NCBI GenBank assembly: GCA_003650125.1
Contig: QNFX01000001.1
Location: 1 to 64,000, forward strand
DNA length: 64,000 nt
DNA from: Campylobacterota bacterium
GTDB taxonomy: Bacteria; Bdellovibrionota; Bacteriovoracia; Bacteriovoracales; Bacteriovoracaceae
Direction: 5' to 3'
The stretch's first letter is position 1, and each line of letters begins with the position of its first letter. This document shows positions 748 through 17,121 of this stretch, piece after piece. The notes beneath the pieces are model-generated. The model did no database searches, was not told the DNA's origin, and was given only the letters and a program-made list of their open reading frames with translations. Both the position numbers and the translations under genes were made by a program.

Positions 748-756
748 TGGTAAAAT
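748..756 (+). promoter_or_regulatory. Extended -10 promoter of protease A
   Basis: TGGTAAAAT is an extended -10 (TGN plus hexamer) at the same distance before the start codon as in the other four module genes. No good -35 hexamer is visible. The predicted leader is only about 20 nt and contains the GGAG ribosome-binding site. Confidence 0.55.
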
Positions 757-783
757 GGAATGTGATTAAAACTGGAGCTGAAT

Positions 784-2010
784 ATGAAAAAGCTATTTTT
801 AATTCTTCCACTGGCTGCCTTATTGTTTGCGACACAGGGCTGGGCGCCGCCTCCGGGGAAAGGTGGAGCTACAGGCGGTCCAGATATTTCAAAATGTGAT
901 TTGAAACCAAAAGATCAGACTAAACTAAAATTAAAGGATAAATCTGGAAAAATCCACTATATTTGTACCGGAGTTGCGATATGTGGAGGAAAAGCTACTC
1001 CCGTTTCTTGTAAAGTTAGCGAAAGAGAATCTTGTCCAACAGCAAAGGTTTGTATTGGTTCTCCGGTGCATAATATTCTTAAGGATTCGCCCATAAAATA
1101 TAATATTCCCAAAGCCTATCAGTCTATTAAATTTTGTAAAGACGCCAAACAATCCCTGGAACCTTTTCCCGATATTAAGAGAGAAGAATTTATTCCGATT
1201 ACTGTTGTTGAGGCACAGCCGAAAATTTTATCAGCTCCAAGCGGAATAAATAATTATACTCCACCAAAGCATGAACTTGGAAAGGCTCAAGAAGTTACCT
1301 CATCAGTATATAAGGCAAATACATTTTTTAAACCAGCAGGAAAGTTAAAAATGTGTGAAAAATTTAATTTTGAACCTAACGAATGGCATGATTGCTCTGC
1401 TTCAGTTATTAAAATTGGCAAAAAAATGGCCTTGGTAACAGCAGCCCATTGTGTGTTCAATTATAGAGCAGAAAAAAAGCCTTATTTATTCTATTATGAC
1501 TTACACTTTATACCAGGATTGGGCCTAGAATCATCTGAAAAGAAATTTTTTGTAACTAGTATTATTATTCCTTGGGGATTTAGGCAGTTGGGACCAGGTT
1601 ATCATAATTATGATATTGCAATTCTTGAATTAGCCCAGGAGCCAAGAGAAAATTGTTGTTTTGGTTTGATAAATACAGCCATGACAACTCCTGGAATTCA
1701 AATTGGCTATCCTGTAGCACCACCCTTTTCAGATAAGGAAAAGAAGATGTATTATTTATCTATAGAAAAATTTTTGGAAGAGTCAGTTATCCCTTCGGAT
1801 ATGACTCAGGGGTCTAGCGGAGGGCCTTGGGTAGGAAATTTTCAAAAGAAGGGAAATTATGGGTATATTTCTGGCATAAATTCACGAAAAAGTGAATTAG
1901 ATAAAAAGAAGGTTATGCGGTCCCCAGGAAGGTGGGACGTAATTGAAAATCTATTCCTTTGCTCAAAGGGAGAAATGGATTGTGAGATTATAAATTTGCC
2001 TACAAAATAA
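784..2010 (+). CDS. Secreted trypsin-like serine protease A with shared six-Cys N-terminal module
   Basis: This 408-aa protein opens with a signal peptide (residues 1 to about 16-21), a Pro/Gly-rich APPPGKGG stretch and the shared module with Cys38, 61, 67, 76, 84 and 90. A variable linker (about 91-185) leads into a chymotrypsin-fold (S1 family) protease domain. His222 (VTAAHC), Asp277 (NYDIAI) and Ser345 (GSSGGP) form the triad, so it should be active. A Cys-Cys pair near 291 recurs in proteases C and E. The ATG has GGAG 5 bases upstream. The linker has the right place to be a propeptide, but no cleavage site is obvious. The companion gene at 2090 follows after a perfect hairpin. Likely secreted to the periplasm or beyond; the substrate is unknown. 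Confidence 0.92.
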   Translation: MKKLFLILPLAALLFATQGWAPPPGKGGATGGPDISKCDLKPKDQTKLKLKDKSGKIHYICTGVAICGGKATPVSCKVSERESCPTAKVCIGSPVHNILKDSPIKYNIPKAYQSIKFCKDAKQSLEPFPDIKREEFIPITVVEAQPKILSAPSGINNYTPPKHELGKAQEVTSSVYKANTFFKPAGKLKMCEKFNFEPNEWHDCSASVIKIGKKMALVTAAHCVFNYRAEKKPYLFYYDLHFIPGLGLESSEKKFFVTSIIIPWGFRQLGPGYHNYDIAILELAQEPRENCCFGLINTAMTTPGIQIGYPVAPPFSDKEKKMYYLSIEKFLEESVIPSDMTQGSSGGPWVGNFQKKGNYGYISGINSRKSELDKKKVMRSPGRWDVIENLFLCSKGEMDCEIINLPTK

Positions 2011-2014
2011 ATAC

Positions 2015-2062
2015 TTATTATATTTAAAAATTGGTGAATTCTCCAATTTTTAAATATAATAA
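2015..2062. terminator. Perfect 20-bp hairpin between protease A and its companion
   Basis: Arms 2015-2034 and 2043-2062 are perfectly complementary over 20 bp, with an 8-base loop (TGAATTCT). The stem begins 5 bases after the protease stop codon and ends 27 bases before the companion start. No uridine run follows on the plus strand, so it is not a classical terminator for the protease. It may protect or process the mRNA, or separate expression of the two genes. Confidence 0.7.
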
Positions 2063-2089
2063 TAAAAAGCAAAAAAAAGGAATTCTTCT

Positions 2090-2953
2090 TTGAAAATAAA
2101 ATTTATTATTTTTATTATTATGTTTTTAAAAACCTCAGTTGGTTTTTCAGAAGAAGTTTTGTTAAATGAATATCAAAAAATGTTATATGAAAATGTTGAG
2201 TCCTTAAATCAGTATAAGACCGGATTGGTATTTCTTGAAAAAATGAATTCAGACGGACTATTTATCTACCCTAGAGATGGAAATTCCAAAACCACAATTG
2301 TTTGCTACGGAAGATCTGAGAAAAAATATACTATTTTGCTTTCTGGAGTTGAAAAAGAGAGCCTGGGGGTAAAGGTCGATGAGCGCTATTACCAACTGGA
2401 AGAAAAGAAATTTTTTTTAAAGAAAGGTGAGCCAAATTATTCTAGATGTAAGGAGTATTTTGGTGCAGAGATTGCTAAAATAGATCGTATTAAACTAAAG
2501 AAAAAAAAACTTGTTTCCCTTTTAAATTTTAAAAAGATTAACAATGATGATTGGATTTTAGGGGTTCATAAAATTGATAAAAAAAGATTAGAAGTTACAT
2601 TAGAACCTAGGCCTATATTGGGACCTTCTCCTTATTGCGGACCTCGAGGGGTATTTATTGAAGAGCCTAGGCCTAAGACCCTCAAATTAGATGACCTCGA
2701 TGCTCATGTTATTACGTATGATTTAAGTCGCCCTTGGGAATTTGCGAAAGAGAAGATATATCGGATAAAAGACAAGGGGGTTAAAGTAACATTGGAAAAA
2801 CTCCCCCGTATTCATATAAGTACAATATATGAAAAGATTAAGGATGTTGAAGTAGATTTTGGAGATTTTACCTATACTACCAGCAGACATGGATGTTTAG
2901 GGCAGGTTCAGGGGCCAAAGAAGACATGGCGGGAGATTTATGAGAGAATCTAA
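2090..2953 (+). CDS. Secreted companion protein, type I, behind protease A
   Basis: This 287-aa protein starts at TTG behind AAAAAAGGA and has a signal peptide (about 1-20). I do not recognise the family. It is a clear paralogue of the product of 4639-5529. They share CxGRSE (Cys72), a Tyr-Gln-Leu-x-Glu-Lys-Lys-Phe segment near 101-108, CKE near Cys120, a Tyr-Cys-Gly-Pro turn at Cys183, a DVEV segment near 255 and a final Cys near 269. The four conserved cysteines could form two disulfides in the periplasm. The fixed position behind a protease suggests an inhibitor, chaperone or co-secreted subunit, but this is inference only. Confidence 0.85.
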   Translation: MKIKFIIFIIMFLKTSVGFSEEVLLNEYQKMLYENVESLNQYKTGLVFLEKMNSDGLFIYPRDGNSKTTIVCYGRSEKKYTILLSGVEKESLGVKVDERYYQLEEKKFFLKKGEPNYSRCKEYFGAEIAKIDRIKLKKKKLVSLLNFKKINNDDWILGVHKIDKKRLEVTLEPRPILGPSPYCGPRGVFIEEPRPKTLKLDDLDAHVITYDLSRPWEFAKEKIYRIKDKGVKVTLEKLPRIHISTIYEKIKDVEVDFGDFTYTTSRHGCLGQVQGPKKTWREIYERI

Positions 2954-3108
2954 TAAAATACCATCTTGGAATCGTTAATATATTTTTTTTTGATTAGAAA
3001 AATCCTTAACCTCTCTCTCTTTTGATATAATTAATAATAAAAAATGAGCAGAGGGTTTTGGTTCTGAGAGACATCGAAACAGACTCAACCGTAGACTTTA
3101 AAATTTAA

Positions 3109-3189
3109 ATAACCTTTGTTTAATTTCTAGATTCGACCTTGAGTTAATCTTTAGTTATCAACTTAATTTATTTAGAAGGAGCTAAGTTA
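3109..3189 (+). repeat. 81-bp direct repeat, copy 1, upstream of protease B
   Basis: This stretch is base-for-base identical to 11237-11317, which lies at the same distance upstream of module gene D. It ends just before the variable inverted repeat at 3196. Identity at non-coding positions over 81 bp means recent duplication or gene conversion of the promoter region. Confidence 0.9.
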
Positions 3190-3195
3190 CTTTAA

Positions 3196-3230
3196 TTCCT
3201 GACCAACAAGGGCAAGAATTGTGGTAAAAT
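3196..3230 (+). promoter_or_regulatory. Promoter of protease B: inverted repeat plus extended -10
   Basis: TTCCTGACC (3196-3204) and GGGCAAGAA (3210-3218) form an imperfect inverted repeat (7 of 9 pairs) around a 5-base centre. It covers the -35 area, and TGGTAAAAT (3222-3230) follows as extended -10. The matching stretch upstream of gene D differs in sequence but keeps the symmetry. This suggests an operator for a dimeric regulator. Confidence 0.5.
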
Positions 3231-3257
3231 AGAAGGTGATTTAAAAAGGAGTTCATT

Positions 3258-4541
3258 ATGAAAAAGCTATTTTTAATTTTTCCACTAGCTGCCTTATTGT
3301 TTGCGACACAGGGCTGGGCGCCACCTCCGGGGAAAGGTGGAGCAGCTGGTTTTGATGCTTCAAAGTGTGATTTAAAGCCCAAGGAGCAGACTAAAGTTGC
3401 CCTAAAAGATAAATCAGGTAAATTAATATTTGTTTGTATAGGATCAGCTGTATGCGGAGGTAAAACAGTTCCTGTTAGCTGTAAGGTCTCGGAAAGGGAA
3501 GCATGTCCCATGGCAAAAAAATGTGTCGTTTCAGATGCTACTGGTATCAACGAATATTATGGAATTCTTTGTAGTGATTTAAATAGACCAAATGCTCCAC
3601 AAAAGAAAATGTTTGATAATATAAAACCTGAAATGCTCAAGCCTCAGGTTATAGAAATTCAAGAAAATAAATTAAAAGAATTTTTAAAAACTTTTAAGGG
3701 AGAGAAAATTTTAAGGGATAATGTAATAGAGATTAATTTAAAAAGCGGTCATCCTTATCATACAGAACAGGTTTCCACCGGTAAATCATGGAATGTTGGC
3801 GAAAGGAAGGGAGCTTATTTACCAGTTGGGAAACTAGAAGTTTTTGATAAGGGAAATCCAAATGAGTATATTCCATGTACAGCTTCCTTAATCAAAGTTC
3901 CAGCAACCGGAAGGTATGGTTTAGTTACTGCAGCTCATTGCTTAATGGTCAGTCATAAGAAAATATGGCCAAAAACGATTAAATTTAGCCTTAACTACAA
4001 CTATGGGGACCCAATAATTTTATATGGGACCAGGGCCATCATTAATAAAGGATATTTTACTCTTCCTGGTGGAAGCTTTGACCAATTTATATTTGATCTT
4101 GCCTTAGTAGAATTAGAGGAAACTAATCTTAAATTAGAAACATTTGGTCTTATAACAAATCCGAATAAAGATATTTTAAGGGGTACCTCTCTTGGATATC
4201 CTATTTGGCTTCCGGGCACGGGTTGGGTGAAGGATAATATGAGAGCAGTTGAAATTAAAGACATGGAAGCTATTACAAGCCCTCCCCCGGCTAATAATAT
4301 TTATAACTATAAAATACCAACCGATTTAACCTGGGGTTCTAGCGGAGGTCCTTGGATTGGATGGGACAAAAAAAATGGTTCATCAACAAATCGGAAATTC
4401 GGATTTATATTAGGAGTAAATTCCAAAGGGAAAAGAGGGAAATATGTTTTAAGTCCTTTTTTTGGTTCCGCAATGTTGAATCAATATAGATGCTTGAATA
4501 GGGACGATTCTCAATGTAAAGATACTTGTCCAAATAGGTAA
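3258..4541 (+). CDS. Secreted trypsin-like serine protease B with shared six-Cys module
   Basis: This 427-aa protein has the same signal peptide and module as protease A (Cys37, 60, 66, 75, 83, 89). A longer linker (about 90-190) leads into an S1-type protease domain with His227 (VTAAHC), Asp280 (FDLALV) and Ser362 (GSSGGP). It lacks the Cys-Cys pair seen in A, C and E. The first 75 coding bases are nearly identical to the other copies, including silent positions, while the rest is strongly diverged, so the 5' end has been homogenised or is constrained as nucleic acid. AAAGGAG precedes the ATG. A type I companion follows at 4639. Confidence 0.92.
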   Translation: MKKLFLIFPLAALLFATQGWAPPPGKGGAAGFDASKCDLKPKEQTKVALKDKSGKLIFVCIGSAVCGGKTVPVSCKVSEREACPMAKKCVVSDATGINEYYGILCSDLNRPNAPQKKMFDNIKPEMLKPQVIEIQENKLKEFLKTFKGEKILRDNVIEINLKSGHPYHTEQVSTGKSWNVGERKGAYLPVGKLEVFDKGNPNEYIPCTASLIKVPATGRYGLVTAAHCLMVSHKKIWPKTIKFSLNYNYGDPIILYGTRAIINKGYFTLPGGSFDQFIFDLALVELEETNLKLETFGLITNPNKDILRGTSLGYPIWLPGTGWVKDNMRAVEIKDMEAITSPPPANNIYNYKIPTDLTWGSSGGPWIGWDKKNGSSTNRKFGFILGVNSKGKRGKYVLSPFFGSAMLNQYRCLNRDDSQCKDTCPNR

Positions 4542-4638
4542 AACTTATTCACAAAGTTTTTATAAAAAATAATATTGATCATTTAGCTACTAAGCTCTAC
4601 CCTTTAAATAAAAAAAAACTTTACTGCTAAGGGAAAAA

Positions 4639-5529
4639 ATGGGAATTAAAATTTTCAAGGAAGTCTTTAAAAAATCAAAGCTGCATTGGATAACCATTTG
4701 TCTACTTTTTATGGTAATTACTGGAGCTTTTGGGGAAGATCAAATAACTGTTGATGAATATAAAAATCTTCTCCTAAAAAATGTAGAAGTTCAGAATAGT
4801 TTAAAGGAGGGCATGGTATTTTTAACTAGTTTTGAAAAAGACTATATTTTTGGCAATTTTCGAACAGATGAACTTGCCAAAAATGTTCCTTGTAGAGGAC
4901 GTTCAGAAGTTAAGTCCACAATCCTATTTTTTGAATTTAAAGGAAACCGCTTCTATCAACTTGATGAAAAGAAATTTTGGTTGGATGATAATGATATAGA
5001 TTATTTAAATTGTAAGGAACATTTTAAGGGAGACCTAATTGAAACACAAGAAATCACTTTAAAAGAGAAAAAAACTCTCAGTTTGCTTGATTTCAAAAAT
5101 CTTTTAAAAGATAAAAAACCCGAATTTTTTGTATTAAAAAACCATATAATAAAGATTATCCGGGAACCTGATTTTAACCATTCAATACCTACTTACTGCG
5201 GTCCTATCCCCCCTCAACCCTATTCTAATAAAAAAATAGACTTTGCAAAGGATGAAAGAACCTTAGAAATGGAAGAATATATTAATTTAAAATGGCCTGA
5301 GCCTTTTAGGGTTAAGAAAATATATTTAAATTACCTTAGAAGATGGGGCTTCAAAAGGGAAAGACTTCCCAATATAGATATCAAAGAAAAATACAAAAAA
5401 ATTATGGATGTTGAAGTCAATTTAGGGTCGTATTCTTATCCGCTCACAGAAGGGTGTAAAAAAGAAAAATCCTTTCCCAAAAAAAAATGGAAGCATATTA
5501 TAAATTGGCGTCCTCCTTGGCCTTATTAA
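4639..5529 (+). CDS. Secreted companion protein, type I, behind protease B
   Basis: This 296-aa paralogue of the 2090-2953 product has the same four cysteine positions and the same RSExK, YQLDEKKF, CKEHF, YCGP and DVEV landmarks. The N-terminus is longer: a basic stretch precedes the hydrophobic segment near residues 18-32, so a later start or an uncleaved anchor is possible. The gap after protease B is 97 bp and holds a weak hairpin (AAAACTT with AAGTTTT) but not the long stem seen behind protease A. Function unknown; its conserved place behind a protease points to a partner role. Confidence 0.82.
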   Translation: MGIKIFKEVFKKSKLHWITICLLFMVITGAFGEDQITVDEYKNLLLKNVEVQNSLKEGMVFLTSFEKDYIFGNFRTDELAKNVPCRGRSEVKSTILFFEFKGNRFYQLDEKKFWLDDNDIDYLNCKEHFKGDLIETQEITLKEKKTLSLLDFKNLLKDKKPEFFVLKNHIIKIIREPDFNHSIPTYCGPIPPQPYSNKKIDFAKDERTLEMEEYINLKWPEPFRVKKIYLNYLRRWGFKRERLPNIDIKEKYKKIMDVEVNLGSYSYPLTEGCKKEKSFPKKKWKHIINWRPPWPY

Positions 5530-5851
5530 TAACAAATGGAATTTTTTCTTTAAAATGCTCTCGTGAAGTCACTTCTCTCACCCACTCCACTCTATTTCTA
5601 ATAACTCCCTTTGTTAGGAATAAAATTTATAAATTTTTGCCCTGCTTCAATAGCCAAAATCATTCAGAAATCTTAAGAAAAATTTCCAACACGTTTCTTA
5701 ATTCAAGAAAAAATGAAGAAATCGACCAAAAACAGTCGGATTCTCTTGATATCGAGAATAAATATCCTTAATCCATTTGTTTCCAAAATCTGATTAAGAC
5801 GATTTCATAACAAGATTTGTTGCGATTAAATATCCAGCTAAATAAAGTCCT
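5530..5851. other. Intergenic stretch carrying a repeated 53-bp block
   Basis: No convincing gene is seen. Bases 5573-5625 align without gaps to 12981-13033 (43 of 53 identical). Each copy contains a small inverted repeat (TTAGGAA with TTCCTAA or a one-mismatch form). An open frame of 94 codons crosses the block, but it begins inside the companion gene and has no ribosome-binding site. Confidence 0.5.
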
Positions 5852-6204
5852 TTAGAAAGTCTCAAGTATGGCCTTCACGGTTTTTAACTTTTCCGCCTTA
5901 AGCCGCTTCAAAATTTCAATGCACTCAGAGAGAGTGTGTTCTGGTGCCTCTTTCTTTTCTGTCAGGAAATCCAAAAAATCCTTATAGGAATATCCATAGG
6001 CCTGAACTACTTTAAAATAAAATCCGGGTGAAGGTCTTTTCTTCCATTCTCTGCATGATTTACCTGGGCATTACTAATCCCCACAACTTTAGCTGCTTTT
6101 CTCATAGAAAGCTTTTTTGACTCTCTCATGTACTTTAATATGAGGGCCTCCTTAGTCATTTTTTTGGTGTCTGACCTTCTTTTCCATTTCCTTTTTACTG
6201 TCAT
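5852..6204 (-). pseudogene. Frameshifted XRE-family regulator, paralogue of 16730-17083
   Basis: The first 65 codons (6204 down to 6007) encode a helix-turn-helix of the XRE/Cro type, nearly identical to the intact paralogue. Near 6010 one base is missing relative to the paralogue, giving a premature TAG. The rest of the protein (KVVQAYGYSYKDFLDFL and on to a C-terminal ILETF) continues in the next frame to a TAA at 5852. The -38 side is cut by the IS66 element at 6243: the two paralogues match up to TCGCTCTTTTTT and part exactly at the IS end. So both the reading frame and the upstream control region are broken. Confidence 0.85.
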
Positions 6205-6311
6205 AGCAATTCTCCTTTATATTGGTTGAATCGCTCTTTTTTGGTAAGTTGGGCCTAGACCCCTCATAAAAAGTAATGGCCATGATCCGATCAATGAGCA
6301 TCGGAGGTTCC

Positions 6312-6668
6312 ATGGATTCTAAAAATTTAATCATCATCGAAAAAATTAAAAGTCTTTACTCACAACTTAAAAGCACTGGCGTTGGGAAAAAATATCCACC
6401 GGCAATGAAGGTCCTTATTCGAGAATTATTTATAAATGGGATGGCCAAAAAAGAAATAGCCAGATCCATTCCCGTTTCCATGTTTACCATCAGGAAATGG
6501 ACCGCTGACATTGAGGTACCTGAAAATAATGATTTTGATTTTTCGCCAATCTCAATTAAATATGATTCTGATCAAAAATATATTATAAGACATGTTTCGG
6601 GATTTTCTATTGAAGTGAATGATCTCAATTCTCTTTCCTTAATCTTGATGAAAATTAAATCACTTTGA
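6312..6668 (+). CDS. TnpA-like helix-turn-helix protein of the IS66 element, inverted
   Basis: The start is placed at 6312, behind CGGAGG, giving 118 aa. A longer frame from 6276 has no ribosome-binding site. Residues near 30-60 form a transposase-type helix-turn-helix (pattern KYPPAMKVLIRELFINGM then KKEIA...FTIRKW). The last 25 residues, with GFSIEV and a leucine-rich tail, resemble the C-terminal end of IS66 TnpA. In usual IS66 elements tnpA lies just upstream of tnpB on the same strand. Here it is at the opposite end, pointing toward tnpC, and the two coding ends overlap by 9 bases. Assignment to TnpA is by pattern only. Confidence 0.65.
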   Translation: MDSKNLIIIEKIKSLYSQLKSTGVGKKYPPAMKVLIRELFINGMAKKEIARSIPVSMFTIRKWTADIEVPENNDFDFSPISIKYDSDQKYIIRHVSGFSIEVNDLNSLSLILMKIKSL

Positions 6669-8180
6669 TGGTGGCGATAGCGCCGATAATTCTTTGACCA
6701 ACTTGTCCATGATCTCGCTACTGAGCCGTGAGGAATACTGGTAAGGACTTTCAAGCTCTTCACCTTTGGCCGAACGATGGGCCATCTCATTAATGTAGCC
6801 CCTGGCATCGAGCCCATTTGATTTACAAGATTCTATCACGGAATAAAAAAATGAACCTACATCCGCACCATTGATCGATTTAAAATGAAGGAAGTTTTTT
6901 CTCCCCATTACTGGGCACCTTTGTCTTCTTTCCGCCATATTATTATCTATCGGAACATTTTCATCATAAAGAAAAAGGTGAAGGCCATCTTTCCTATCTA
7001 AATAATAATTGATCGCCTTCCCCATAGAAGAGGAATCTAGATAATGTCCATCTTGATTTTGAATCCAGTTATCAATTTCCTTTATGACTTTTAAAGATTT
7101 GTCCGATCTAAGATCTTTTAAATCTTTCACTTCCTCGGCCTCATGTTCAATTTCATAAAGTTCATCGATGAAATCCACCATCTTTTCTGCCTTTGGATCA
7201 TGATTCATGGCCTCAAAAAATTTGCGCCTAACATGGGCCCAGCAAAAGGCATGGCCTATATTTTTCATTTGATCTAAAAAATTGTAACCGCCATAACCGT
7301 CTGTCACCACATTGCCAGAGGTGTAGCCTCTCAACATTTCTCTTGCAACCGATCCCGATCTTGTTGGCTCAAATTGATAAAATGCCCCTCTTGGATTGGA
7401 CATGGACCAAATGTATCCCTTGCTTTTATTAGGGTTATAAAAGTTTATGGGGGATTCATCGATATGAATCCATTTTTCGCCAAGGATATCTTGCCTGATC
7501 ATTTCTTGAAGTGGATAAAGACGATTGTAAAGGTGTTCGGTTAATCCAAAAAGGGTTTTAACTTCAACATTTAGTCCTGCCCTTTTCATTTGTTTGCGCT
7601 GTCTTTCCAGAGGCAGATGATCTTCAAACTTATCACAAGCAATTTGTGTTGCCATTTGAATCGAATACTCACCACCGGGAGTTAATTTTACTCCTCCAGG
7701 AGCGGTTGAAATCTTGTTACAACATTTACAGGAATACTTTTTTCTCTTGTGCCTTTTTAAAAGATAACGTCTTTCGATGACTTCAAACTCTGAAGATTCT
7801 TCAAAACAGTTTTTCATTTCAGAGACTTTATCACTTCCACATTTAGGGCATAGGCCATCTTCAAGATTGTATTCAATGATTTTCTGATCAAGAGTTATCT
7901 CTTCATCTTCATGGTTTTCATTTTTGGATTTATTATGGGGAAGCTTTCCCTTTTTTCTTTTATTTTTTGGACTATTGGCCTTTCTTTCCTGTTTGGAATC
8001 GAAGACTCTTTTTCTAAGGGCCTTTAATTCTTCGCTTAATTTTTGAAGAATTTTAACATCCTTTTCTTTTTCTTTTTGCTTTTGGGCAACTAGCTTTTCA
8101 AGGGTGAGAACTTTTTCTTGAAGAAGTTTGCCGGCTTCCCTTAAAAATTCTTTGTCATTTTCTTTATCAAAGTCATACAT
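6660..8180 (-). CDS. tnpC: IS66 transposase TnpC
   Basis: This 506-aa protein has the full IS66 layout: an N-terminal coiled coil and basic region (1-100), a zinc-binding motif (CPKCGS near 113-118 and CKCC near 150), and the DDE catalytic domain. Catalytic acids are in HIDESP, VVTDGYGGY and NNMAERR, and the hallmark CWAHVRRKFFEA is present. An IS66-type C-terminal tail (SCKSNGLDARGYI) follows. Nothing is truncated, so it may still be active. It lies 43 bp after tnpB. Confidence 0.95.
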   Translation of the reverse strand: MYDFDKENDKEFLREAGKLLQEKVLTLEKLVAQKQKEKEKDVKILQKLSEELKALRKRVFDSKQERKANSPKNKRKKGKLPHNKSKNENHEDEEITLDQKIIEYNLEDGLCPKCGSDKVSEMKNCFEESSEFEVIERRYLLKRHKRKKYSCKCCNKISTAPGGVKLTPGGEYSIQMATQIACDKFEDHLPLERQRKQMKRAGLNVEVKTLFGLTEHLYNRLYPLQEMIRQDILGEKWIHIDESPINFYNPNKSKGYIWSMSNPRGAFYQFEPTRSGSVAREMLRGYTSGNVVTDGYGGYNFLDQMKNIGHAFCWAHVRRKFFEAMNHDPKAEKMVDFIDELYEIEHEAEEVKDLKDLRSDKSLKVIKEIDNWIQNQDGHYLDSSSMGKAINYYLDRKDGLHLFLYDENVPIDNNMAERRQRCPVMGRKNFLHFKSINGADVGSFFYSVIESCKSNGLDARGYINEMAHRSAKGEELESPYQYSSRLSSEIMDKLVKELSALSPPSK

Positions 8181-8223
8181 AGATAAATTTTAAGTTGGCC
8201 AACACAATAGGCCCAGAAAAAAA

Positions 8224-8568: not shown

Positions 8569-8727
8569 CTAGGGAGAATAACGGAACTTTTAGGATCGAG
8601 CTAGAACGTGGTGTTCGCCCAAGTTACCAATTAACTTAACAATAGTTTATTTAACATTGATTCTTCTATTCATTTTATTTGAAAATTAAATTTCTTTCTT
8701 TTTTGCAACCAATTAAGTCAGGTGTTG

Positions 8728-8736
8728 TGGTAGAAT
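8728..8736 (+). promoter_or_regulatory. Extended -10 promoter of protease C
   Basis: TGGTAGAAT stands at the conserved place before the start. The preceding region has only a weak inverted repeat (CAACC with GTTG). The IS66 right end lies 100 bp upstream, so regulatory DNA further upstream has been cut off from this gene. Confidence 0.5.
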
Positions 8737-8763
8737 AGAAGGTGCTTCAAAAAGGAGATGATG

Positions 8764-10089
8764 ATGAACAAGCTATTTTTAATTTTTCCACTAGCTGCCT
8801 TATTGTTTGCGACACAGGGCTGGGCGCCACCTCCAGGAAAGGGTGGGGCGACTGGCGGTCAAGATGTATCAAAATGTGATTTGAAACCAAAAGAGCAAAC
8901 AAAAATTACTCTCAAAGATAAAGCCGGGAAGGTACACTATATTTGTACTGGAATTGCGGTTTGTGGAGGCCAGTCAGTACCTGTCAGCTGTAGAGTGAGC
9001 GAGAGAGAAGCTTGCCCCATGGCTTCAAAGTGTATTAGTTTTTCTAATTTTCATTTGGACACCTCCCAAAATTTAGAAAATAACGATGAAGTACTTATTT
9101 ATGACCTTCCGGATCGAATCCAAGAGTCGGACAGAAGAGTAATCGAGAGAGGAGAAAGCTCTATGCCTTGGCCAATGCCAGAATTTGAAGATAAAATTGA
9201 AAACCCTTTCGAATTTATTGAATTAAAGACAAAAAAAAATCCTACCTACCTGGCCGAACCGCTCAATCTAATAAATTACTTTGGGGAGCAAGGACAAAAA
9301 GCGGGAAAAGGTGTGAAAGTACAAATATCTAATCCTTTTTTAAAGCCGATTGGAAAATATCATAAGTATATCAATAATAAATATGCTGGGGCTTGCTCAG
9401 GGTCAACAATTTCATTAGATCCCAAAGGAAAAAAAACAGGAAGCATTGCGGTTGTTACTGCTGCTCATTGTTTAATGAATCCAAATAGGACTATGTTAAT
9501 TAATAAAGCTGAATTTACCCCTATGGCCGGTTTAAAAGATAAACTTGGAAACCCTGAAAATACTAAAGCCTATGCTGTAAGGAGTATAGTTTTTCCCGCC
9601 AATTTTATAAAAAGAAAGGACTTTTCATTTTGGAATTTTGATTTTGCAATTCTTATACTTGATGAAATAATACCAACAGATTTCTGTTGTTATGGTTTAA
9701 TCGCAAATGGTGGAATCGCTCCAGGGTTATCTTTGGGGTACCCTTCCGTACCTGGAACAGATTTTCAGGGAGACCTTTGGGATGTTTTAATAAAATGGAA
9801 TGGCATTAAAACAGGTGGATATCAAACTGGACAAAGAAAGGTGTATTATAAAGAAATATCTAGTAATTTAGATACAGGAATAAGTGGTGGGCCTTGGATT
9901 GGAAGCAATTCTGATGGGAGTAAGTATGGATATATAATTGGTATAAACTCTCGTGTTGGACCTAGGGGTAAAAGACCCCGAACCCTTACGAGATCATCAA
10001 TCTTAGAAGACTGGATCATTGATGTAATTAATTGTGCTAAAGTAGGAAAAACGAAGGGAAAGTGTAAAAAAATAACGAGGTTGCCTTAA
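8764..10089 (+). CDS. Secreted trypsin-like serine protease C with shared six-Cys module
   Basis: Three ATG codons are in a row (8758, 8761, 8764). The third lies 6 bases from the GGAG and gives the same N-terminus as its paralogues, so it is chosen (441 aa). The signal peptide and module have Cys38, 61, 67, 76, 84 and 90. A long acidic linker (91-190) precedes an S1-type protease domain with His235 (VTAAHC), Asp293 (FDFAIL) and Ser374. The serine motif is GISGGP instead of GSSGGP, still compatible with activity. A Cys-Cys pair near 308 matches A and E. The type II companion pair follows at 10181. Confidence 0.92.
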   Translation: MNKLFLIFPLAALLFATQGWAPPPGKGGATGGQDVSKCDLKPKEQTKITLKDKAGKVHYICTGIAVCGGQSVPVSCRVSEREACPMASKCISFSNFHLDTSQNLENNDEVLIYDLPDRIQESDRRVIERGESSMPWPMPEFEDKIENPFEFIELKTKKNPTYLAEPLNLINYFGEQGQKAGKGVKVQISNPFLKPIGKYHKYINNKYAGACSGSTISLDPKGKKTGSIAVVTAAHCLMNPNRTMLINKAEFTPMAGLKDKLGNPENTKAYAVRSIVFPANFIKRKDFSFWNFDFAILILDEIIPTDFCCYGLIANGGIAPGLSLGYPSVPGTDFQGDLWDVLIKWNGIKTGGYQTGQRKVYYKEISSNLDTGISGGPWIGSNSDGSKYGYIIGINSRVGPRGKRPRTLTRSSILEDWIIDVINCAKVGKTKGKCKKITRLP

Positions 10090-10180
10090 TTGATATTTTG
10101 AGCAATTTCACGAGGCTTTTTAAAATAAGAAGTTATTTTGGATTTACAGGAGATACTTTTGTGGTTGATAATAAACTAAA

Positions 10181-10552
10181 GTGAAAAAAAATATATTTAA
10201 GTTAATTATTATTACAGCATTTTTAATTCTGCCTATAAAAGTATTTTCCGGCACGAATACTTTTCCAAGTTCTTTTAATACAAAAAAGGTTCAAATCCTT
10301 TTACTAAATGATTTTATAGAATTAATGAGAAAACCTTCAAATAAGAGTTATTATAGAATTAAGGTTATTGATGTTAACCTAAAAGTCCTTGATAATGGCC
10401 TAAACATTTATGATGGTAAAATTTATTTTAATACCCCTGAGTGTGAGAATAGAACCTTTAAGAAAGAGTGGATTTCCAGTGCCTGTGAAAATGATTACTG
10501 TATGGCCATTTGGTCTGAACTAAATGAATGCTCAGTAAAGGATGGGTCATGA
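10181..10552 (+). CDS. Small secreted companion, type II, first of pair behind protease C
   Basis: This 123-aa protein starts at GTG without a clear ribosome-binding site and has a signal peptide (about 1-23, ending VFSG). The mature part starts with FPSSF, followed by a helix-like region, beta-prone segments and four cysteines in the last 40 residues (pattern C-x14-C-x4-C-x11-C). Three paralogues share this (10549, 14697, 15059). I do not recognise the family. The size, the helix-then-strand pattern and the disulfides are what one would see in cystatin-like inhibitors, but no sequence motif of cystatins is present. Its stop overlaps the next start. Confidence 0.8.
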   Translation: MKKNIFKLIIITAFLILPIKVFSGTNTFPSSFNTKKVQILLLNDFIELMRKPSNKSYYRIKVIDVNLKVLDNGLNIYDGKIYFNTPECENRTFKKEWISSACENDYCMAIWSELNECSVKDGS

Positions 10553-10905
10553 AATTTTTCATCCTCCCTATTTTACTCCTTTTGTTGACCCAAGTATCTC
10601 AGGCAAAATCAGATTCTTTTCCATCTGGGTTTAAACCTAAAAAGGCAAAATTATTATCTATTAAAAATTTTATTTCTGACATGGAACAAAACTCAAAATA
10701 TAGGGACATATTCTACAATATAACATACGTAAATCTAAAAATAACGGAAGAAAGCTACTATATTGAGGTAGTTTTTAGTACCCCAAATTGCGTGGAAAGA
10801 AGGGCATACTATACTTGGCGACCAGTCTCCTGTACTGATTTTAAGTGCAAACCGACTGATAGCAAAATTGAAAATTGTCTATATTTTAAAAATCATGTGC
10901 ATTAA
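10549..10905 (+). CDS. Small secreted companion, type II, second of pair behind protease C
   Basis: The start is set at the ATG at 10549, which overlaps the preceding stop (ATGA) and gives a normal signal peptide of about 20 residues. A frame from 10528 exists but begins inside the preceding gene. The mature protein opens with FPSGF and shows the same four-cysteine ending as its neighbour (NC, SC, KC, NC). Stop-start overlap means coupled translation and suggests the two products are needed in fixed ratio, perhaps as a heterodimer. Confidence 0.8.
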   Translation: MKFFILPILLLLLTQVSQAKSDSFPSGFKPKKAKLLSIKNFISDMEQNSKYRDIFYNITYVNLKITEESYYIEVVFSTPNCVERRAYYTWRPVSCTDFKCKPTDSKIENCLYFKNHVH

Positions 10906-11236
10906 ACCAGTTCTATCACAACATTTCCCCTCTTCCCCAAAAATCTACTTATGATAATCTCATAGGTCCCATTCAGGATAGGGCCTATTATGAAATCGTT
11001 ACTCAAGATTTGAGGCTGAGTTTGTGCTCCTTTTTGCCCGTTGGTATCTAGCATACCCGCTTTCATATAGGAACATAGAAGAAATGATGAAAATGAGAGA
11101 GCCTTAGGAAGATCCTGGCGACTTAAGGAGAGAGGAGAAAGGTCAGCGCAGCTTTTCTTGTTTTTAAAAATAAGGAAAGGAAAATTCCACTTTTGTGAAA
11201 TAACGAAATAAATTCAACCTTAACTAAATTTTTTAT
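10906..11236. other. Long intergenic stretch upstream of the promoter repeat of gene D
   Basis: I see no gene. An inverted repeat (ATAGGTCC at 10962-10969 with AGGGCCTAT at 10980-10988) lies near the left end but no T-run follows. The base composition (stretches of AGGAGA and GCGCAGC) is more GC-rich than the flanks, so it may be a decayed gene. From 11237 the 81-bp repeat begins. Confidence 0.4.
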
Positions 11237-11317
11237 ATAACCTTTGTTTAATTTCTAGATTCGACCTTGAGTTAATCTTTAGTTATCAACTTAATTTATT
11301 TAGAAGGAGCTAAGTTA
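11237..11317 (+). repeat. 81-bp direct repeat, copy 2, upstream of module gene D
   Basis: Identical over 81 bp to 3109-3189. Downstream, 35 bases differ at about 12 positions, then identity resumes through the -10, the leader and the first codons. So the two promoters differ almost only in the inverted repeat. Confidence 0.9.
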
Positions 11318-11323
11318 TCTATT

Positions 11324-11358
11324 TTCCTGATCACGATGGTCGGGAATTGTGGTAAAAT
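11324..11358 (+). promoter_or_regulatory. Promoter of module gene D: inverted repeat plus extended -10
   Basis: TTCCTGATC (11324-11332) and GGTCGGGAA (11338-11346) pair over nine positions if G-T pairs are allowed, around a 5-base centre. TGGTAAAAT (11350-11358) follows at the same spacing as for protease B. Changes relative to that copy partly compensate each other across the symmetry axis. Confidence 0.5.
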
Positions 11359-11385
11359 AGAAGGTGATTTAAAAAGGAGTTCATT

Positions 11386-12297
11386 ATGAACAAGCTATTT
11401 TTAATTCTTCCCCTAGCTGCCCTATTGTTTGCGACACAGGGCTGGGCGCCGCCTCCGGGAAAAGGTGGGGCGACAGGGGGTCAAAACCTTTCCAAATGCG
11501 ATCTCAAGCCTAAAGATCAGGAAAAGTTTGATTTTACTGACAAAAAAGGGAAAACCCACTTTCTTTGCACTGGCGAAGCCAGTTGTGCAGGTAAAACCAT
11601 CCCAATTTCCTGCAAGGTAACTGAAAAAGAAGAATGTCCAATGGCTAAAAAATGTGTAGTTTTTCCTATTGGTGTAACTGATGAAATTTTCAAAACAGAG
11701 TCATACCACCGGAGCACATGTAGAAATGTTGATTTAATTTTTAAAAGCACGGAAAAGGGTAATGAGATGGAGTTCAAGGTCTCTCTAAAAAGTCAATTTT
11801 GGATGAAAGTGAGTTCTACTAACGGAGGAGCTCGGGGAAAGTACAAGAGAACTACAGTTTTTTACATGTATACGGACGGATTAACCCACAGACAAGCCGA
11901 TATCAAGGTTGATCCAAAGCTTAAGGTCTTAGAATATTTTCGTAAGAAAAAAATCACAAAAGAGCAAATTATTCCTTTCTGGGCCATCCAAAAAGAAGGT
12001 TGGGGTTACGTAGGAGGACATAATAATCACAGGGATGTTGCTAAATTTATCGACAGTGAAGTATTAAAAGAAAAAGATAAAAATGGTTTAGGAAAAAGAC
12101 TATACAAAGATTTAGATAAAGAATTTCAAAGTCACCTGAATGATTTCATGCTAATGCTGAAAAAAGAACTTGGGGGAGGCAAGGTTATACCTAAAATAAC
12201 AGCCGATACTAAGGGAAGATGCCTCGTACCTATAGACGCAGACATATCACGGTACTTTGGAAACCCTGGTTCATATTTAATAGAATTTAAAAAATAA
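11386..12297 (+). CDS. Secreted protein with the shared six-Cys module but a non-protease C-terminus
   Basis: This 303-aa protein has the same signal peptide and module as the four proteases (Cys38, 61, 67, 76, 84, 90). After about residue 95 the sequence has no relation to them: no VTAAHC and no GSSGGP. The unknown domain (about 100-303) has a Lys-rich, beta-prone first half, a GGHNNHRD cluster near 206-213, a charged helical segment (KEKDKNGLGKRLYKDLDKEF), and one late cysteine near 285. It may be another hydrolase or binding domain. This swap shows that the N-terminal module is a portable unit. No companion follows on the same strand; a convergent secreted gene lies at 12327. Confidence 0.85.
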   Translation: MNKLFLILPLAALLFATQGWAPPPGKGGATGGQNLSKCDLKPKDQEKFDFTDKKGKTHFLCTGEASCAGKTIPISCKVTEKEECPMAKKCVVFPIGVTDEIFKTESYHRSTCRNVDLIFKSTEKGNEMEFKVSLKSQFWMKVSSTNGGARGKYKRTTVFYMYTDGLTHRQADIKVDPKLKVLEYFRKKKITKEQIIPFWAIQKEGWGYVGGHNNHRDVAKFIDSEVLKEKDKNGLGKRLYKDLDKEFQSHLNDFMLMLKKELGGGKVIPKITADTKGRCLVPIDADISRYFGNPGSYLIEFKK

Positions 12298-12326
12298 CAT
12301 CCTTTAATCTCTATTAAAAGCAAGAG

Positions 12327-12860
12327 TTAAATCTCATTAAAAATTATATTTTCGGAATATAAAACAAATTCTGGATAATTAAAATCTTCGGCCATTGCCA
12401 GACCGTATATTGGAAAAGGTCCATGATAAAAAGCCTTCCCTTTTTCAAAGGGAGGGTAAACGTCAAAATGAATCAGAGGTGTCTTACAAACCTCCACTAA
12501 CTTGACCATATTTTTAACTTCGGAAAATACTTTAAGCACCTCTATCACTCCATTAAATTCCTGACATTGATTAACCATATGGGCAATTTCATACTTATCA
12601 GGAAATTTATTTGATCTCACCCACCTTTCAGAAATTTCACTTACACCTTTTTCATTAATTTTTTCTTCCCTCAATAAATAAAATTTCAATACACTATCAT
12701 ACTCAATAATTTCTGCAGATATCCTTCTTTCAATCGGTGCCTCAGTTGAGTTAACAAAACCTTTCCAGATGAATTTGATCCGATCCCCCACTTCAACAGA
12801 GTAGGCTCTAAAAGCGAGAACAAAACAGAAAAAAACAAGAAAAATCATTTTAAAAAACAT
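12327..12860 (-). CDS. Secreted protein of unknown function, convergent with gene D
   Basis: This 177-aa protein has a signal peptide (about 1-21) and an ATG behind GGGAGGGCA. The mature part starts VEVGDRIKFIWKG, beta-rich, with two cysteines (near 99 and 125). I do not recognise it. It ends 30 bp from the end of gene D on the opposite strand. It could serve as partner to D in the way the companions serve the proteases, but the opposite orientation argues for separate control. Confidence 0.75.
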   Translation of the reverse strand: MFFKMIFLVFFCFVLAFRAYSVEVGDRIKFIWKGFVNSTEAPIERRISAEIIEYDSVLKFYLLREEKINEKGVSEISERWVRSNKFPDKYEIAHMVNQCQEFNGVIEVLKVFSEVKNMVKLVEVCKTPLIHFDVYPPFEKGKAFYHGPFPIYGLAMAEDFNYPEFVLYSENIIFNEI

Positions 12861-12980
12861 ACTGCCCTCCCTATAAATATATCTATTAATGAAATACTTT
12901 AAGATTAAATTCTCGAAGAATCAAAATTTGAATGTTTTTAACAAAACAGTGCGTAAAATATCACAAAAAAGATCTGCTTA

Positions 12981-13033
12981 TTCTCTCACCAACTCACTTT
13001 TATTCCTAACAGCTCCCCTTATTAGGAATAAAA
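12981..13033 (+). repeat. Second copy of the 53-bp repeated block
   Basis: Ungapped match to 5573-5625 (43 of 53). This copy has a clean inverted repeat (TTCCTAA at 13003-13009 and TTAGGAA at 13022-13028). Both copies lie in gaps of the cassette island. A 61-codon frame crosses the block, and both copies could encode SLT-S-LFL-x2-P-x2-RNK, so a decayed small gene is possible. Confidence 0.5.
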
Positions 13034-13285
13034 ACTTACAACCGATATCATCAACCTTTTTATTTAAGCTCTAAGGCCTATTTTTTATCCGGCCCTAACC
13101 TTGATATCTTTTTTCCCTTGATCACCCCGCTTGTGCGATTTATGGGCCTTATACTTATAGAAAATTTAAACCCTTTAAAACAAATTTTATTTAGAAGTGT
13201 CTTTTCAATTCCTTGTCCCTCCTCAGGTCAACAGCTTTTTACGGGATACTAAAGGGAAATTCAATTTTTAGCTATAACCGCCTTA

Positions 13286-13318
13286 CTTGATAAATAAAAT
13301 CAAGCTTCGTGGTATAAT
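13286..13318 (+). promoter_or_regulatory. Promoter of protease E: inverted repeat plus consensus extended -10
   Basis: CTTGAT (13286-13291) and ATCAAG (13299-13304) are a perfect 6-bp inverted repeat. TGGTATAAT (13310-13318) is a consensus extended -10, the best of the five copies. The inverted repeat has the same place as in B and D but another sequence. Confidence 0.55.
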
Positions 13319-13345
13319 AGGAAGTAGCTTAATCAGGAGACAAAA

Positions 13346-14587
13346 GTGAAAAAGCTATTTTTAATTCTTCCACTAACTGCCTTATTGTTTGCGACACAGG
13401 GCTGGGCGCCGCCTCCGGGAAAAGGTGGGGCGACAGGGGGTCAAGATCTTTCTAAATGTGACCTTAAACCTAAAGAGCAGACTAAAGTTACTTTAAAAGA
13501 TAAATCTGGAAAAGTTCATCATATTTGTACTGGGCTGGCGGTTTGTGGAGGAAAATCAGTAACTGTCAGTTGTAAAGTAAGTGAAAAGGAAGAATGCCCG
13601 ATAGCAAAAAAATGTGTAACGATGTCGGGTGTTGAATCTGCGATAGATGGAATTGAGGATCATGAATACGACTCCATGACAACTGAGGAGCTTAAGAAAT
13701 ATTGGACTCCAGAAAGAATTGAGAAGGCGATTCCTGAAGAGATGGAAGTAGACCCTAAAGATCTTAGGGGTCTTAGTCAGTCTGAGGAACCTCTTGGACG
13801 TTCCCTAATAATATCTAATCCAAGAAATATTCCAGATCAACTTACAGATTCTGCTGGAAAGCTGACAGAAGGCCCTGCCATTAAAGTGAAAGAGCTGACT
13901 CCATTATATCGACCAACAGGAGTCCTTCTCTATAATAAAAAGGGTATCACTGGTGATTTTAGGTGTACAGCCTCTTTAATTTACCTAGAAAAGACTAAAG
14001 AGATAGGCATGCTATCGGCGGCGCATTGCTTCTATGACCAAAAGACTAGAAAGCCATCCCGTTGGCATACTTTTGTCCCTGAATATGGGTTTATAGATAA
14101 AAGAAAACATGAATACTACGGGGTTAAAAGACATATGGTTTTCGGTCCATGGAAGCGTGTGGGACGAGTGCGATGGGACATTGATTTTGTTATTGCGACC
14201 TTTAGTAAAAAGGTGCCAGAAAAATTTTGCTGTCATGGGATAATTAAAGGGTTATCAAGGCCCCCCAAATTTACACTAGGCTACCCTGCGGTTGGACGCT
14301 TTGCAGGCAATCGAAATATGCTCTTAATTAATCTATACAACTTACATACTGGGGAGAGACCATTTATAAGATCTGAGAATGAGTTTACGGGGGGATCAAG
14401 CGGAGGGCCTTGGATAGGAGGTGACCCTCAATCAAAAAAGTACGGCTATATTTTTGGTATTAATAGTTGGATTCGTGGAAAAACGAATCCAAATAAACAA
14501 ATGTATTCCCCCCCATTTGGAAAAAATATTGAAAATATGTATAAATGTTTTCTTAAAGAACGGGGAATTCCAGGATGCCCATATTAA
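13346..14587 (+). CDS. Secreted trypsin-like serine protease E with shared six-Cys module
   Basis: This 413-aa protein starts at GTG behind CAGGAG. The module is almost the same as in C (Cys38, 61, 67, 76, 84, 90). The acidic linker (91-185) has several acidic clusters. The S1-type protease domain has His227 (LSAAHC), Asp280 (WDIDFV) and Ser352 (GSSGGP), so it should be active. The Cys-Cys pair near 295 matches A and C. The type II pair at 14697 and 15059 follows. Together C and E form one subgroup by companion type. Confidence 0.92.
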   Translation: MKKLFLILPLTALLFATQGWAPPPGKGGATGGQDLSKCDLKPKEQTKVTLKDKSGKVHHICTGLAVCGGKSVTVSCKVSEKEECPIAKKCVTMSGVESAIDGIEDHEYDSMTTEELKKYWTPERIEKAIPEEMEVDPKDLRGLSQSEEPLGRSLIISNPRNIPDQLTDSAGKLTEGPAIKVKELTPLYRPTGVLLYNKKGITGDFRCTASLIYLEKTKEIGMLSAAHCFYDQKTRKPSRWHTFVPEYGFIDKRKHEYYGVKRHMVFGPWKRVGRVRWDIDFVIATFSKKVPEKFCCHGIIKGLSRPPKFTLGYPAVGRFAGNRNMLLINLYNLHTGERPFIRSENEFTGGSSGGPWIGGDPQSKKYGYIFGINSWIRGKTNPNKQMYSPPFGKNIENMYKCFLKERGIPGCPY

Positions 14588-14696
14588 TTATCGCCATTGA
14601 TGCTTAGCTCAAGAAAGTATATTTTACAAATTATAGTTTTCATTGCTTTGATTCTTCGATTAATGTAACCCTAAAGATAAATGGGGTTATTAAAAC

Positions 14697-15059
14697 ATGA
14701 TGCGGTTTCTTTTTATTCTCCTTTTCTATTTTTGCTCTGGAATACCTGCCTACTCTGAAGACAATCCATTTCCCCAATGGTTTACCCCTGAGCTAGCAAA
14801 ATTAAAAACTATGGAAGAATTCATCAGAATTCAAAAAAAATCTTCTGAAAATGTATTTTATCATATTCAAAAAATTGAGATTAAAGAAATAATGTATAAT
14901 GTTGGCTCCAATGTTTTTGAGGGTAATATTGTTTTTACCTCTAAAGAATGTTCAAAAAAAACCTTTGTTGTGATGTGGTTTGCAGATGCCTGTGACGACC
15001 AAGAATGTCCCTTGATGGTCATTGGTGAAACTCTTTGTGAAGATAAGGAAAGCGATTAA
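14697..15059 (+). CDS. Small secreted companion, type II, first of pair behind protease E
   Basis: This 120-aa protein has a signal peptide (about 1-20, ending AYSED). The mature N-terminus has FPQWFTPELAKL, like FPSSF and FPSGF in the pair behind protease C. The four late cysteines have the same spacing (SKEC, DAC, QEC, LC). The last base of the stop is the first base of the next start (TAATG), so translation is coupled. Function unknown. Confidence 0.8.
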   Translation: MMRFLFILLFYFCSGIPAYSEDNPFPQWFTPELAKLKTMEEFIRIQKKSSENVFYHIQKIEIKEIMYNVGSNVFEGNIVFTSKECSKKTFVVMWFADACDDQECPLMVIGETLCEDKESD

Positions 15060-15406
15060 TGAAAAAGATAATATTTTTTTTAACTGTTCTTCTATCTATC
15101 CCGACTTATTCGAATATAGCTAAGTTTCCTCCCTGGTTTTCACCAAATAGTGCCAAAATCTATGCTATAAAACATTTTATCACCGAAATGAGTATAGAGA
15201 AGGAGACCCTTTATCAAATTAGCGAATTGGATTTAACTCAAAAAATCTTGGAATCCGGGGAAAAAGGAATCGAAGTCAATCTTCTTTTTAAAACTGATAA
15301 ATGTATTGGTAGGAAGGCCATTTTTAAATGGAGATCCAGCCAATGCAGCAATTTAAAATGTAAGCCCTACTTAGAAGAAATTGGGAAATGTCCTCAAACT
15401 ATTTAA
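15059..15406 (+). CDS. Small secreted companion, type II, second of pair behind protease E
   Basis: This 115-aa protein has a signal peptide (about 1-19) and mature start FPPWFSPNSAKI. It resembles the second gene behind protease C more than its own neighbour in the region of RxAxxxWR followed by QC-x4-KCKP. So the pair as a unit was duplicated, not the single genes. Four cysteines are conserved. Confidence 0.8.
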   Translation: MKKIIFFLTVLLSIPTYSNIAKFPPWFSPNSAKIYAIKHFITEMSIEKETLYQISELDLTQKILESGEKGIEVNLLFKTDKCIGRKAIFKWRSSQCSNLKCKPYLEEIGKCPQTI

Positions 15407-15657
15407 AAAATACGTAAAGTCTACTCATCTTAATGTGTAAAATTTTAATGATTGATCTGAATTCAAAAAAGTATAAAATAAAGAGGGATGAATCCTAAAA
15501 AATCCCCCACTCAATTAAATTCCAACCCCCCCCTTTTATTATTGTCTAGAAAAAGAAGACCCTAATTGAGCACATGACTATTACAATCAACTTCTTTTAA
15601 CTTTTTAATCATATTCATGAGATAATTAGGTCCATAAAAAATTATTTAGGAGCAAAA

Positions 15658-17083: not shown

Positions 17084-17121
17084 AGCAATTCTCCTTTATT
17101 TTAGTTGAATCGCTCTTTTTT

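What the first reader, a model, noticed from the sequence alone, without database searches (positions are those of the whole stretch)
784..15406. Array of five secreted module genes with matching secreted companions
Five genes share signal peptide, six-Cys module, promoter and leader; four end in an S1 protease. A and B are each followed by a type I companion, C and E by a coupled type II pair. The link between protease subgroup and companion type suggests functional pairs: inhibitors, chaperones, or subunits that set specificity. Nearly every gene from 89 to 16656 outside the IS and the broken regulator is secreted, as for a predation effector island.
Basis: partly seen in the sequence, partly recalled or inferred. 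Interest (0 to 1): 0.82.

Follow-up and report, generated by a model that had tools for sequence, protein, structure and literature searches.

The report
Constant-head, variable-tail secreted effectors with partners
This bacterium carries at least 17 gene pairs in which a secreted protein with a shared front end and an interchangeable back end (proteases and other domains) sits next to its own secreted partner, most likely an effector with its antidote, and this front end is found in no other genome searched.

Summary
Five window genes share promoter, leader, signal peptide and a six-Cys module. Four end in an S1 protease with intact catalytic residues, and each is followed by secreted companion(s). 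The same genome has 12 more such genes in three other arrays and none occur in 368 other genomes of the phylum. The C-termini fall into nine mutually unrelated classes, and each gene has an adjacent secreted companion. Companion class follows C-terminal class (0 of 200,000 permutations), whereas modules and leaders do not. So a constant 5' half is combined with a variable "C-terminus + companion" cassette, often bounded by a 30-nt palindrome. Eleven of 17 pairs are convergent with 2-29-nt gaps.

Best reading: a lineage-specific polymorphic effector/immunity-like system, with exported effectors and cognate periplasmic inhibitors, working like MafB/MafI or Bdellovibrio Bd3459/Bd3460. It differs in its N-terminal module, exported companions and tail-to-tail pairs. 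Toxicity and inhibition are inferred, not shown.

"Predation island" is unproven. Lone distant relatives of companions I and III exist in related genomes.

The parts
784..2010 (+). Gene A: signal peptide + six-Cys module + S1 protease
   Evidence: ORF; module alignment; S1 triad; PDB profile
2090..2953 (+). Companion cA, type I, secreted; preceded by a ~20-bp AT-rich hairpin at about 2015-2062
   Evidence: type I alignment; family only beside module genes in own genome; hairpin
3258..4541 (+). Gene B: module + S1 protease
4639..5529 (+). Companion cB, type I, secreted
5593..5622 (+). Palindromic boundary element after the B unit (TATTTCTAATAACTCCCTTTGTTAGGAATA)
   Evidence: 9 copies in four arrays, same orientation, at unit ends; 0 expected by chance in window
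8764..10089 (+). Gene C: module + S1 protease
10181..10552 (+). Companion cC1, type II first member, secreted
10546..10905 (+). Companion cC2, type II second member, overlapping cC1
11386..12297 (+). Gene D: module + class III C-terminal domain (no known family)
   Evidence: homologue I at C1:156.7 kb
12327..12860 (-).
13001..13030 (+). Palindromic boundary element between D unit and E unit
13250..13277 (+). Conserved upstream box of gene E (TAAAGGGAAATTCAATTTTTAGCTATAA)
   Evidence: 7 genome hits, all upstream of module genes, 0 in reversed control
13306..13345 (+). Extended -10 (TGGTATAAT) and short leader of E; near-identical to that of gene Q on contig C2
13346..14587 (+). Gene E: module + S1 protease
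14697..15059 (+). Companion cE1, type II first member
15059..15406 (+). Companion cE2, type II second member, 1-nt overlap; AlphaFold2 model pLDDT 82, helix + four strands

Best explanation
The array is one of at least four in this genome of a lineage-specific, polymorphic effector/immunity-like system. Each unit has two halves. The constant half is promoter, leader, Sec signal peptide and a six-Cys export/anchoring module, which exports the protein and co-regulates all units (export and common promoter inferred from sequence). The variable half is a C-terminal effector domain (S1 protease in A, B, C, E; DM9 lectin-like in J; seven classes without a known family) plus an adjacent exported companion. 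The companion most likely binds and blocks its own C-terminal domain in the producer's periplasm, so that the protease or other domain acts only after release onto prey, rivals or non-kin. Because most companions are tail-to-tail with the effector and must be transcribed separately, immunity can stand ready before the effector is made. Units multiply and diversify by recombination in the shared 5' block and between palindromic boundary elements, which swaps C-terminus + companion as a cassette. Shown: constant/variable architecture, pairing, co-segregation, shared promoters, array spread. Inferred: export route, toxicity, inhibition, target, and the recombination route.
For: 17 hits to the N-terminus in four arrays of the genome. 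Nine mutually unrelated C-terminal classes by hhalign. Every gene has an adjacent companion with an N-terminal signal-like segment. Class co-segregation 9 observed, 0 of 200,000 permutations, and closest pairs agree: H-M with cH-cM, L-Q with cL-cQ, D-I with cD-cI. Companion families I-IV in this genome lie only beside module genes, save one orphan in array 2. Module similarity ignores C-terminal class, and E and Q share leader but not C-terminus. DNA homology runs from up to -1070 and stops at the end of signal peptide or module. Promoter boxes occur only before these genes. Boundary palindromes. Proteases retain the triad. Precedents: MafB/MafI, lineage-specific N-terminal domains of Sec/T2SS toxins, predator enzyme with periplasmic immunity protein Bd3459/Bd3460.
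Against: No C-terminal domain except S1 and DM9 matches a family, and none matches a known toxin family; no companion tested matches a known immunity family. DM9 is a carbohydrate-binding domain, not obviously toxic. Companion type I serves both S1 and DM9, and type III serves both class III and K, so pairing is by family, not one-to-one. Companions I and III have distant lone relatives in related genomes that are not beside effectors. The type II model has no significant fold match to an inhibitor. No export system for the module was identified.
Confidence: 0.58

Rival explanations
1. Predation-enzyme arsenal with self-protection: the variable domains are prey-digesting or prey-handling enzymes and lectins, and the companions are periplasmic self-protection proteins, with no role in strain-to-strain competition.
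For: Trypsin-like proteases, a DM9 lectin-like domain and an adjacent secreted S1/P1 nuclease; Bd3459/Bd3460 precedent in a predator.
Against: A digestive arsenal does not need nine unrelated C-termini on one N-terminus with fast divergence and decayed copies; absence from all other genomes of the family argues against a core predatory function; predatory lifestyle and taxon not verified here.
Confidence: 0.2
2. Companions are chaperones, secretion partners or specificity subunits rather than inhibitors: they fold or escort the C-terminal domain after Sec export.
For: Companions are exported like the effectors and are more conserved than the C-termini in each class (e.g. cH-cM 55% vs H-M 41%), as expected for a scaffold; a lipase-foldase type of relation would also track the C-terminus.
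Against: Many unrelated folds would each need their own foldase; type II comes as a tandem of two paralogues plus an orphan copy without effector, which suits spare immunity better than a chaperone; convergent transcription is unusual for subunits.
Confidence: 0.15
3. Host-directed effector family of a eukaryote-associated bacterium, like Amoebophilus APD1/APD2 proteins, with diversity deployed in parallel.
For: Constant N-terminus with parallel diverse C-termini fits APD1/APD2; RING-like secreted protein at 89-577 and DM9, a domain known mainly from animals.
Against: APD proteins have a lipobox, which is absent here; host-only effectors need no cognate companions in the producer; the RING lacks two of eight zinc ligands (read from the sequence).
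Confidence: 0.1
4. Paralogue expansion by hitch-hiking: neighbouring secreted genes were duplicated together and have no functional relation.
For: DNA repeats and recombinase-like fragments show repeated duplication.
Against: Pairs persist at 25-45% C-terminal identity across three contigs while neighbouring 5' halves are reshuffled; companions stay 2-29 nt away in 11 convergent pairs.
Confidence: 0.05

Closest known systems
MafB/MafI of Neisseria (Sec-exported polymorphic toxins; PMC4287609, PMC3482391)
   Same: Signal peptide, genus-restricted constant N-terminal domain, variable C-terminus, adjacent cognate small protein, several genomic islands, extra companion without effector
   Different: No DUF1020 or MafA seen; companions are exported and mostly convergent; all units carry their own promoter and N-terminus rather than promoterless CT cassettes; S1 protease C-termini
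Lineage-specific N-terminal domains: Microscilla-N, APD1/APD2 of Amoebophilus (PMC3482391)
   Same: N-terminal domain confined to one lineage, conserved while C-termini are unrelated and deployed in parallel
   Different: No lipobox; six-Cys module of different sequence; here each gene has a co-varying companion
Bd3459/Bd0816 DD-endopeptidases with periplasmic immunity protein Bd3460 of Bdellovibrio (PMC4686830)
   Same: Exported hydrolase with exported self-protection protein encoded next to it in a predator
   Different: Single ankyrin immunity protein for two enzymes; no constant module, no arrays, no variable C-termini
Mosaic adhesive trimer (MAT) fibres of Bdellovibrio (PMC10769870)
   Same: Expanded family in a predator with shared body and diverse tips
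   Different: Trimeric fibres with adhesive tips; no cognate companions described; different architecture
Secreted S1 (trypsin-like) peptidases, e.g. AL20 (PDB 3cp7)
   Same: Catalytic domain and triad of A, B, C, E
   Different: Fused to the six-Cys module and paired with companions; standalone relatives occur in other genomes of the family (G106)

Membership tests
Polymorphic toxin system (Zhang et al. 2012) | Constant N-terminal trafficking region with highly variable C-terminal domains | tested here: met
   15 full modules + 2 with signal peptide only; nine unrelated C-terminal classes
Polymorphic toxin system (Zhang et al. 2012) | Adjacent immunity gene that co-varies with the C-terminus | tested here: met
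   Adjacency in 17/17, co-segregation 0/200,000 permutations; neutralisation itself untested
Polymorphic toxin system (Zhang et al. 2012) | C-terminal domain is a toxin | not testable with these tools
   S1 protease is plausible; other classes match no toxin model
Polymorphic toxin system (Zhang et al. 2012) | Companion belongs to a known immunity family | tested here: not met
   No Pfam, NCBIfam, PHROG or PADLOC immunity match for the companions tested; new immunity families are common, so this is weak
Polymorphic toxin system (Zhang et al. 2012) | Immunity gene downstream in the same orientation (usual, not strictly defining) | tested here: not met
   11 of 17 convergent, 6 same strand
Polymorphic toxin system (Zhang et al. 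2012) | Standalone C-terminal cassettes and orphan immunity genes | tested here: inconclusive
   One orphan type II companion at C1:159.6 kb and one decayed signal-peptide remnant; no headless C-terminal cassettes seen
MafB/MafI | DUF1020/MAFB-N domain after the signal peptide | tested here: not met
   No Pfam hit in the module
Peptidase family S1 | His-Asp-Ser triad in chymotrypsin-type domain | tested here: met
   Invariant H, D, S in A, B, C, E; PDB S1 profile hits to 1.4e-15; Pfam Trypsin just at cut-off for E
Bd3460-type self-protection protein | Ankyrin repeats | tested here: not met
   No ankyrin hit in any companion tested
Integron gene cassettes | attC site with paired R and L boxes after each gene, and an IntI integrase | tested here: inconclusive
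   Boundary element is a single 30-nt hairpin with a ~6-nt loop, too small for paired R/L boxes; integrase not searched

The most novel reading that the evidence does not exclude
A self-contained, cassette-swapping effector/immunity platform: constant promoter-signal-module heads joined to interchangeable 'effector + exported antidote' tails bounded by a dedicated palindrome. Tail-to-tail gene order uncouples standing immunity in the periplasm from inducible effectors, and the platform is used by one predatory or competing lineage to diversify secreted proteases and binding domains.
Probability: 0.3. Interest if true: 0.78.

Novelty: new variant of a known kind. Interest (0 to 1): 0.64.

Why it matters
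It would add a Sec-exported polymorphic system with exported, mostly convergent antidotes and protease tails, and an N-terminal export module unknown elsewhere. Nine effector classes and eight companion classes, nearly all without a known family, become predicted pairs that can be tested one by one. If the companions are inhibitors, this is a ready set of natural protein inhibitors of S1 proteases and of unknown enzymes. If the organism is a predator, it bears directly on how predators protect themselves from their own secreted enzymes, for which only one case (Bd3460) was described in the papers read.

Tried and rejected
Protease-subgroup link: ML topologies not resolved. Six-Cys module as a known domain (chitin-binding type 2, Kazal and others considered from memory): no Pfam or PDB profile match. 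Class IV C-terminus as an ML lipid-binding domain (hunch from its DG..C..Y..G pattern): AlphaFold2 model pLDDT 43, no support; no fold search run on it. K as a distant class III or V domain, which would make pairing one-to-one: hhalign gave nothing. Type II companion as cystatin: topology of one helix and four strands is compatible, but no PDB match better than E 0.1 and TM below 0.5. Relatives in viral contigs, plasmids and GTDB contigs: none. The GTDB scans used degenerate peptide patterns from the signal peptide and Cys core, so divergent modules could be missed. Boundary palindrome as intrinsic terminator: the hairpin is followed by A-rich sequence on the unit strand, and on the other strand T-rich sequence precedes rather than follows it. 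Boundary palindrome as attC: too short, one hairpin only. An early script for the protease tree timed out and was replaced.
Full report
1. The observation. All five genes are present at the stated coordinates. They share an extended -10 promoter and short leader, a near-identical signal peptide (MKKLFLILPLAALLFATQGWA) and PPPGKGGA linker, and a module with six invariant Cys. A, B, C and E continue into an S1 protease domain: His, Asp and Ser of the triad are invariant, and a profile of the four finds solved serine proteases at 1.4e-15. Pfam Trypsin alone is only at or below its cut-off. The type I (cA, cB) and type II (cC1/cC2, cE1/cE2) companions are real homologous groups.

2. It is a genome-wide family. 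The signal-peptide DNA pattern and a profile of the module find 17 genes in one 2.6-Mb genome: five in the window, six at C1:147.6-166 kb, two on contig C2 and four on C29. Two of these (F, N) share only the signal peptide; 15 have the module. One more decayed signal-peptide remnant lies at about C1:169.0 kb, and gene I carries an in-frame stop. No other genome has the module: 0 of 58 relatives, including one of the same genus (81% complete), 0 of 128 others of the class, 0 of 368 others of the phylum, and no hit in pattern-based scans of GTDB contigs or viral contigs. I label the genes A-E (window), F-K (array 2), L-O (C29), P-Q (C2).

3. Variable tails. Behind the module are nine C-terminal classes with no detectable mutual similarity by BLAST, phmmer or hhalign: S1 protease (A, B, C, E), class III (D, I), IV (G, H, M), V (L, P, Q), DM9 (J; Pfam 6.8e-8), and singletons K, F, N, O. 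Apart from S1 and DM9 they match no Pfam, NCBIfam, PHROG or PADLOC family convincingly in the searches made.

4. Companions follow tails, not heads. Each of the 17 genes has an adjacent companion with an N-terminal signal-like segment. Companion families: I (cA, cB, cJ), II (C and E pairs plus one orphan), III (cD, cI, cK), IV (cG, cH, cM), V (cL, cP, cQ), singletons for F, N, O. Nine of 13 same-class gene pairs also share companion class; 200,000 label permutations never reached this. Within classes the nearest tails have the nearest companions: H-M/cH-cM, L-Q/cL-cQ, D-I/cD-cI. Profile searches of 129 genomes of the class find families I-IV in this genome only at these places, with one orphan type II inside array 2; family V was not searched this way. 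Heads behave differently: the nearest module of E is P and those of H are Q, E and C, all with unrelated tails. E and Q, on different contigs, share a near-identical leader but have unrelated tails. DNA homology between units starts as far as 1070 bp upstream and stops at the end of the signal peptide or of the module. Upstream boxes occur only before these genes (7 of 7 and 6 of 6 hits). A 30-nt palindrome (TATTCCTAATAACTCCCCTTRTTAGGAATA and variants) sits after companions or between units, always in unit orientation, in all four arrays, and is absent from window 17-64 kb. The inferred unit is: head, tail, companion, boundary.

5. Gene order. Eleven pairs are convergent with 2-29-nt gaps and six are on the same strand with 79-172-nt gaps. 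In the same-strand A pair a 20-bp hairpin lies between the genes. Companions must therefore often be expressed from their own promoters.

6. Mechanism (inference). The head would be the export/regulation part and the tail the activity. The companion is exported to the same compartment and co-varies with the tail, so it most likely binds the tail; inhibition in the periplasm is the simplest reason. A chaperone of the constant module should be constant, and it is not. The orphan and doubled type II companions suit spare immunity. AlphaFold2 of cE2 (pLDDT 82, pTM 0.71) gives one helix and four strands, without a significant PDB match, so the inhibitory mode stays open. A full-length model of H was not usable (pLDDT 43).

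7. Limits. Companion families I and III serve more than one tail class and have distant lone relatives in related genomes, so they were probably recruited from ordinary secreted families. The background of N-terminal hydrophobic segments is high in this genome (22 of 37). The genome is a 103-contig assembly, 93% complete, and the window begins at a contig end, so the array may be longer. Members of one class within one array may be tandem duplicates, so the permutation test counts some non-independent pairs; classes I, III, IV and V nevertheless each span two arrays.

8. What is known. Polymorphic toxin systems are defined by constant N-termini, variable C-terminal toxins and adjacent immunity proteins; lineage-restricted N-terminal domains after a signal peptide are described for MAFB-N, Microscilla-N and Amoebophilus APD1/APD2 (PMC3482391; MafB/MafI PMC4287609). 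Trypsin is not mentioned in the held text of that survey. In predators, Bd3460 is a periplasmic immunity protein for exported endopeptidases Bd3459 and Bd0816 (PMC4686830), MAT fibres have diverse tips (PMC10769870), and two-gene systems of secreted lipocone domains are predicted as prey-directed in Bdellovibrionota (PMC12419801). I found no paper on such a system in this group. The present system works like these but meets none of their sequence-defined memberships, so I rate it a new variant of a known kind.

Noticed in passing
window 89-577 (-): Secreted protein with a RING-finger-like C-terminus (Pfam zf-C3HC4_4 9.8e-7) in which the His and the last Cys ligand are missing; its 3' end (69-130) is 98% identical to a stretch near C1:168.4 kb.
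   Followed up: partly
window 15658-16656 (+): Secreted S1/P1 nuclease (Pfam 6.5e-41) directly after the E unit, without module.
   Followed up: no
L009:2267-2530, 4645-5136, 8995-9438, 14185-14448 (-): Short serine-recombinase-like ORFs (one checked: PF07508 Recombinase domain, no catalytic domain) in a ~0.8-1.1-kb repeat upstream of units G, H, I, J; a fifth repeat copy lies before the decayed remnant.
   Followed up: partly
L009:17043-18146 (-) and 18201-18509 (-): Secreted protein ending in a HigB/RelE-like toxin domain (Pfam 3.6e-8) next to a secreted 102-aa protein: a possible further effector/partner pair without the module.
   Followed up: no
window 2015-2062: Long AT-rich hairpin between gene A and its companion; may terminate or attenuate transcription into the companion.
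   Followed up: partly
L009:7395-8992 and L010:2718-3370: HipA-like gene with an XRE-like partner, and a RelE-like/XRE-like pair (the latter read from sequence only), interspersed in array 2: classical toxin-antitoxin genes among the units.
   Followed up: no
L011:2162-2302, 4678-4818, 8467-8579, 10682-10797: A ~140-bp repeat (78-96%) between the units of the C29 array, different from the boundary palindrome.
   Followed up: no
window 5904-6244 vs 16782-17123: Broken copy of the XRE-type regulator (88% identical DNA), suggesting the array ends were duplicated.
   Followed up: partly
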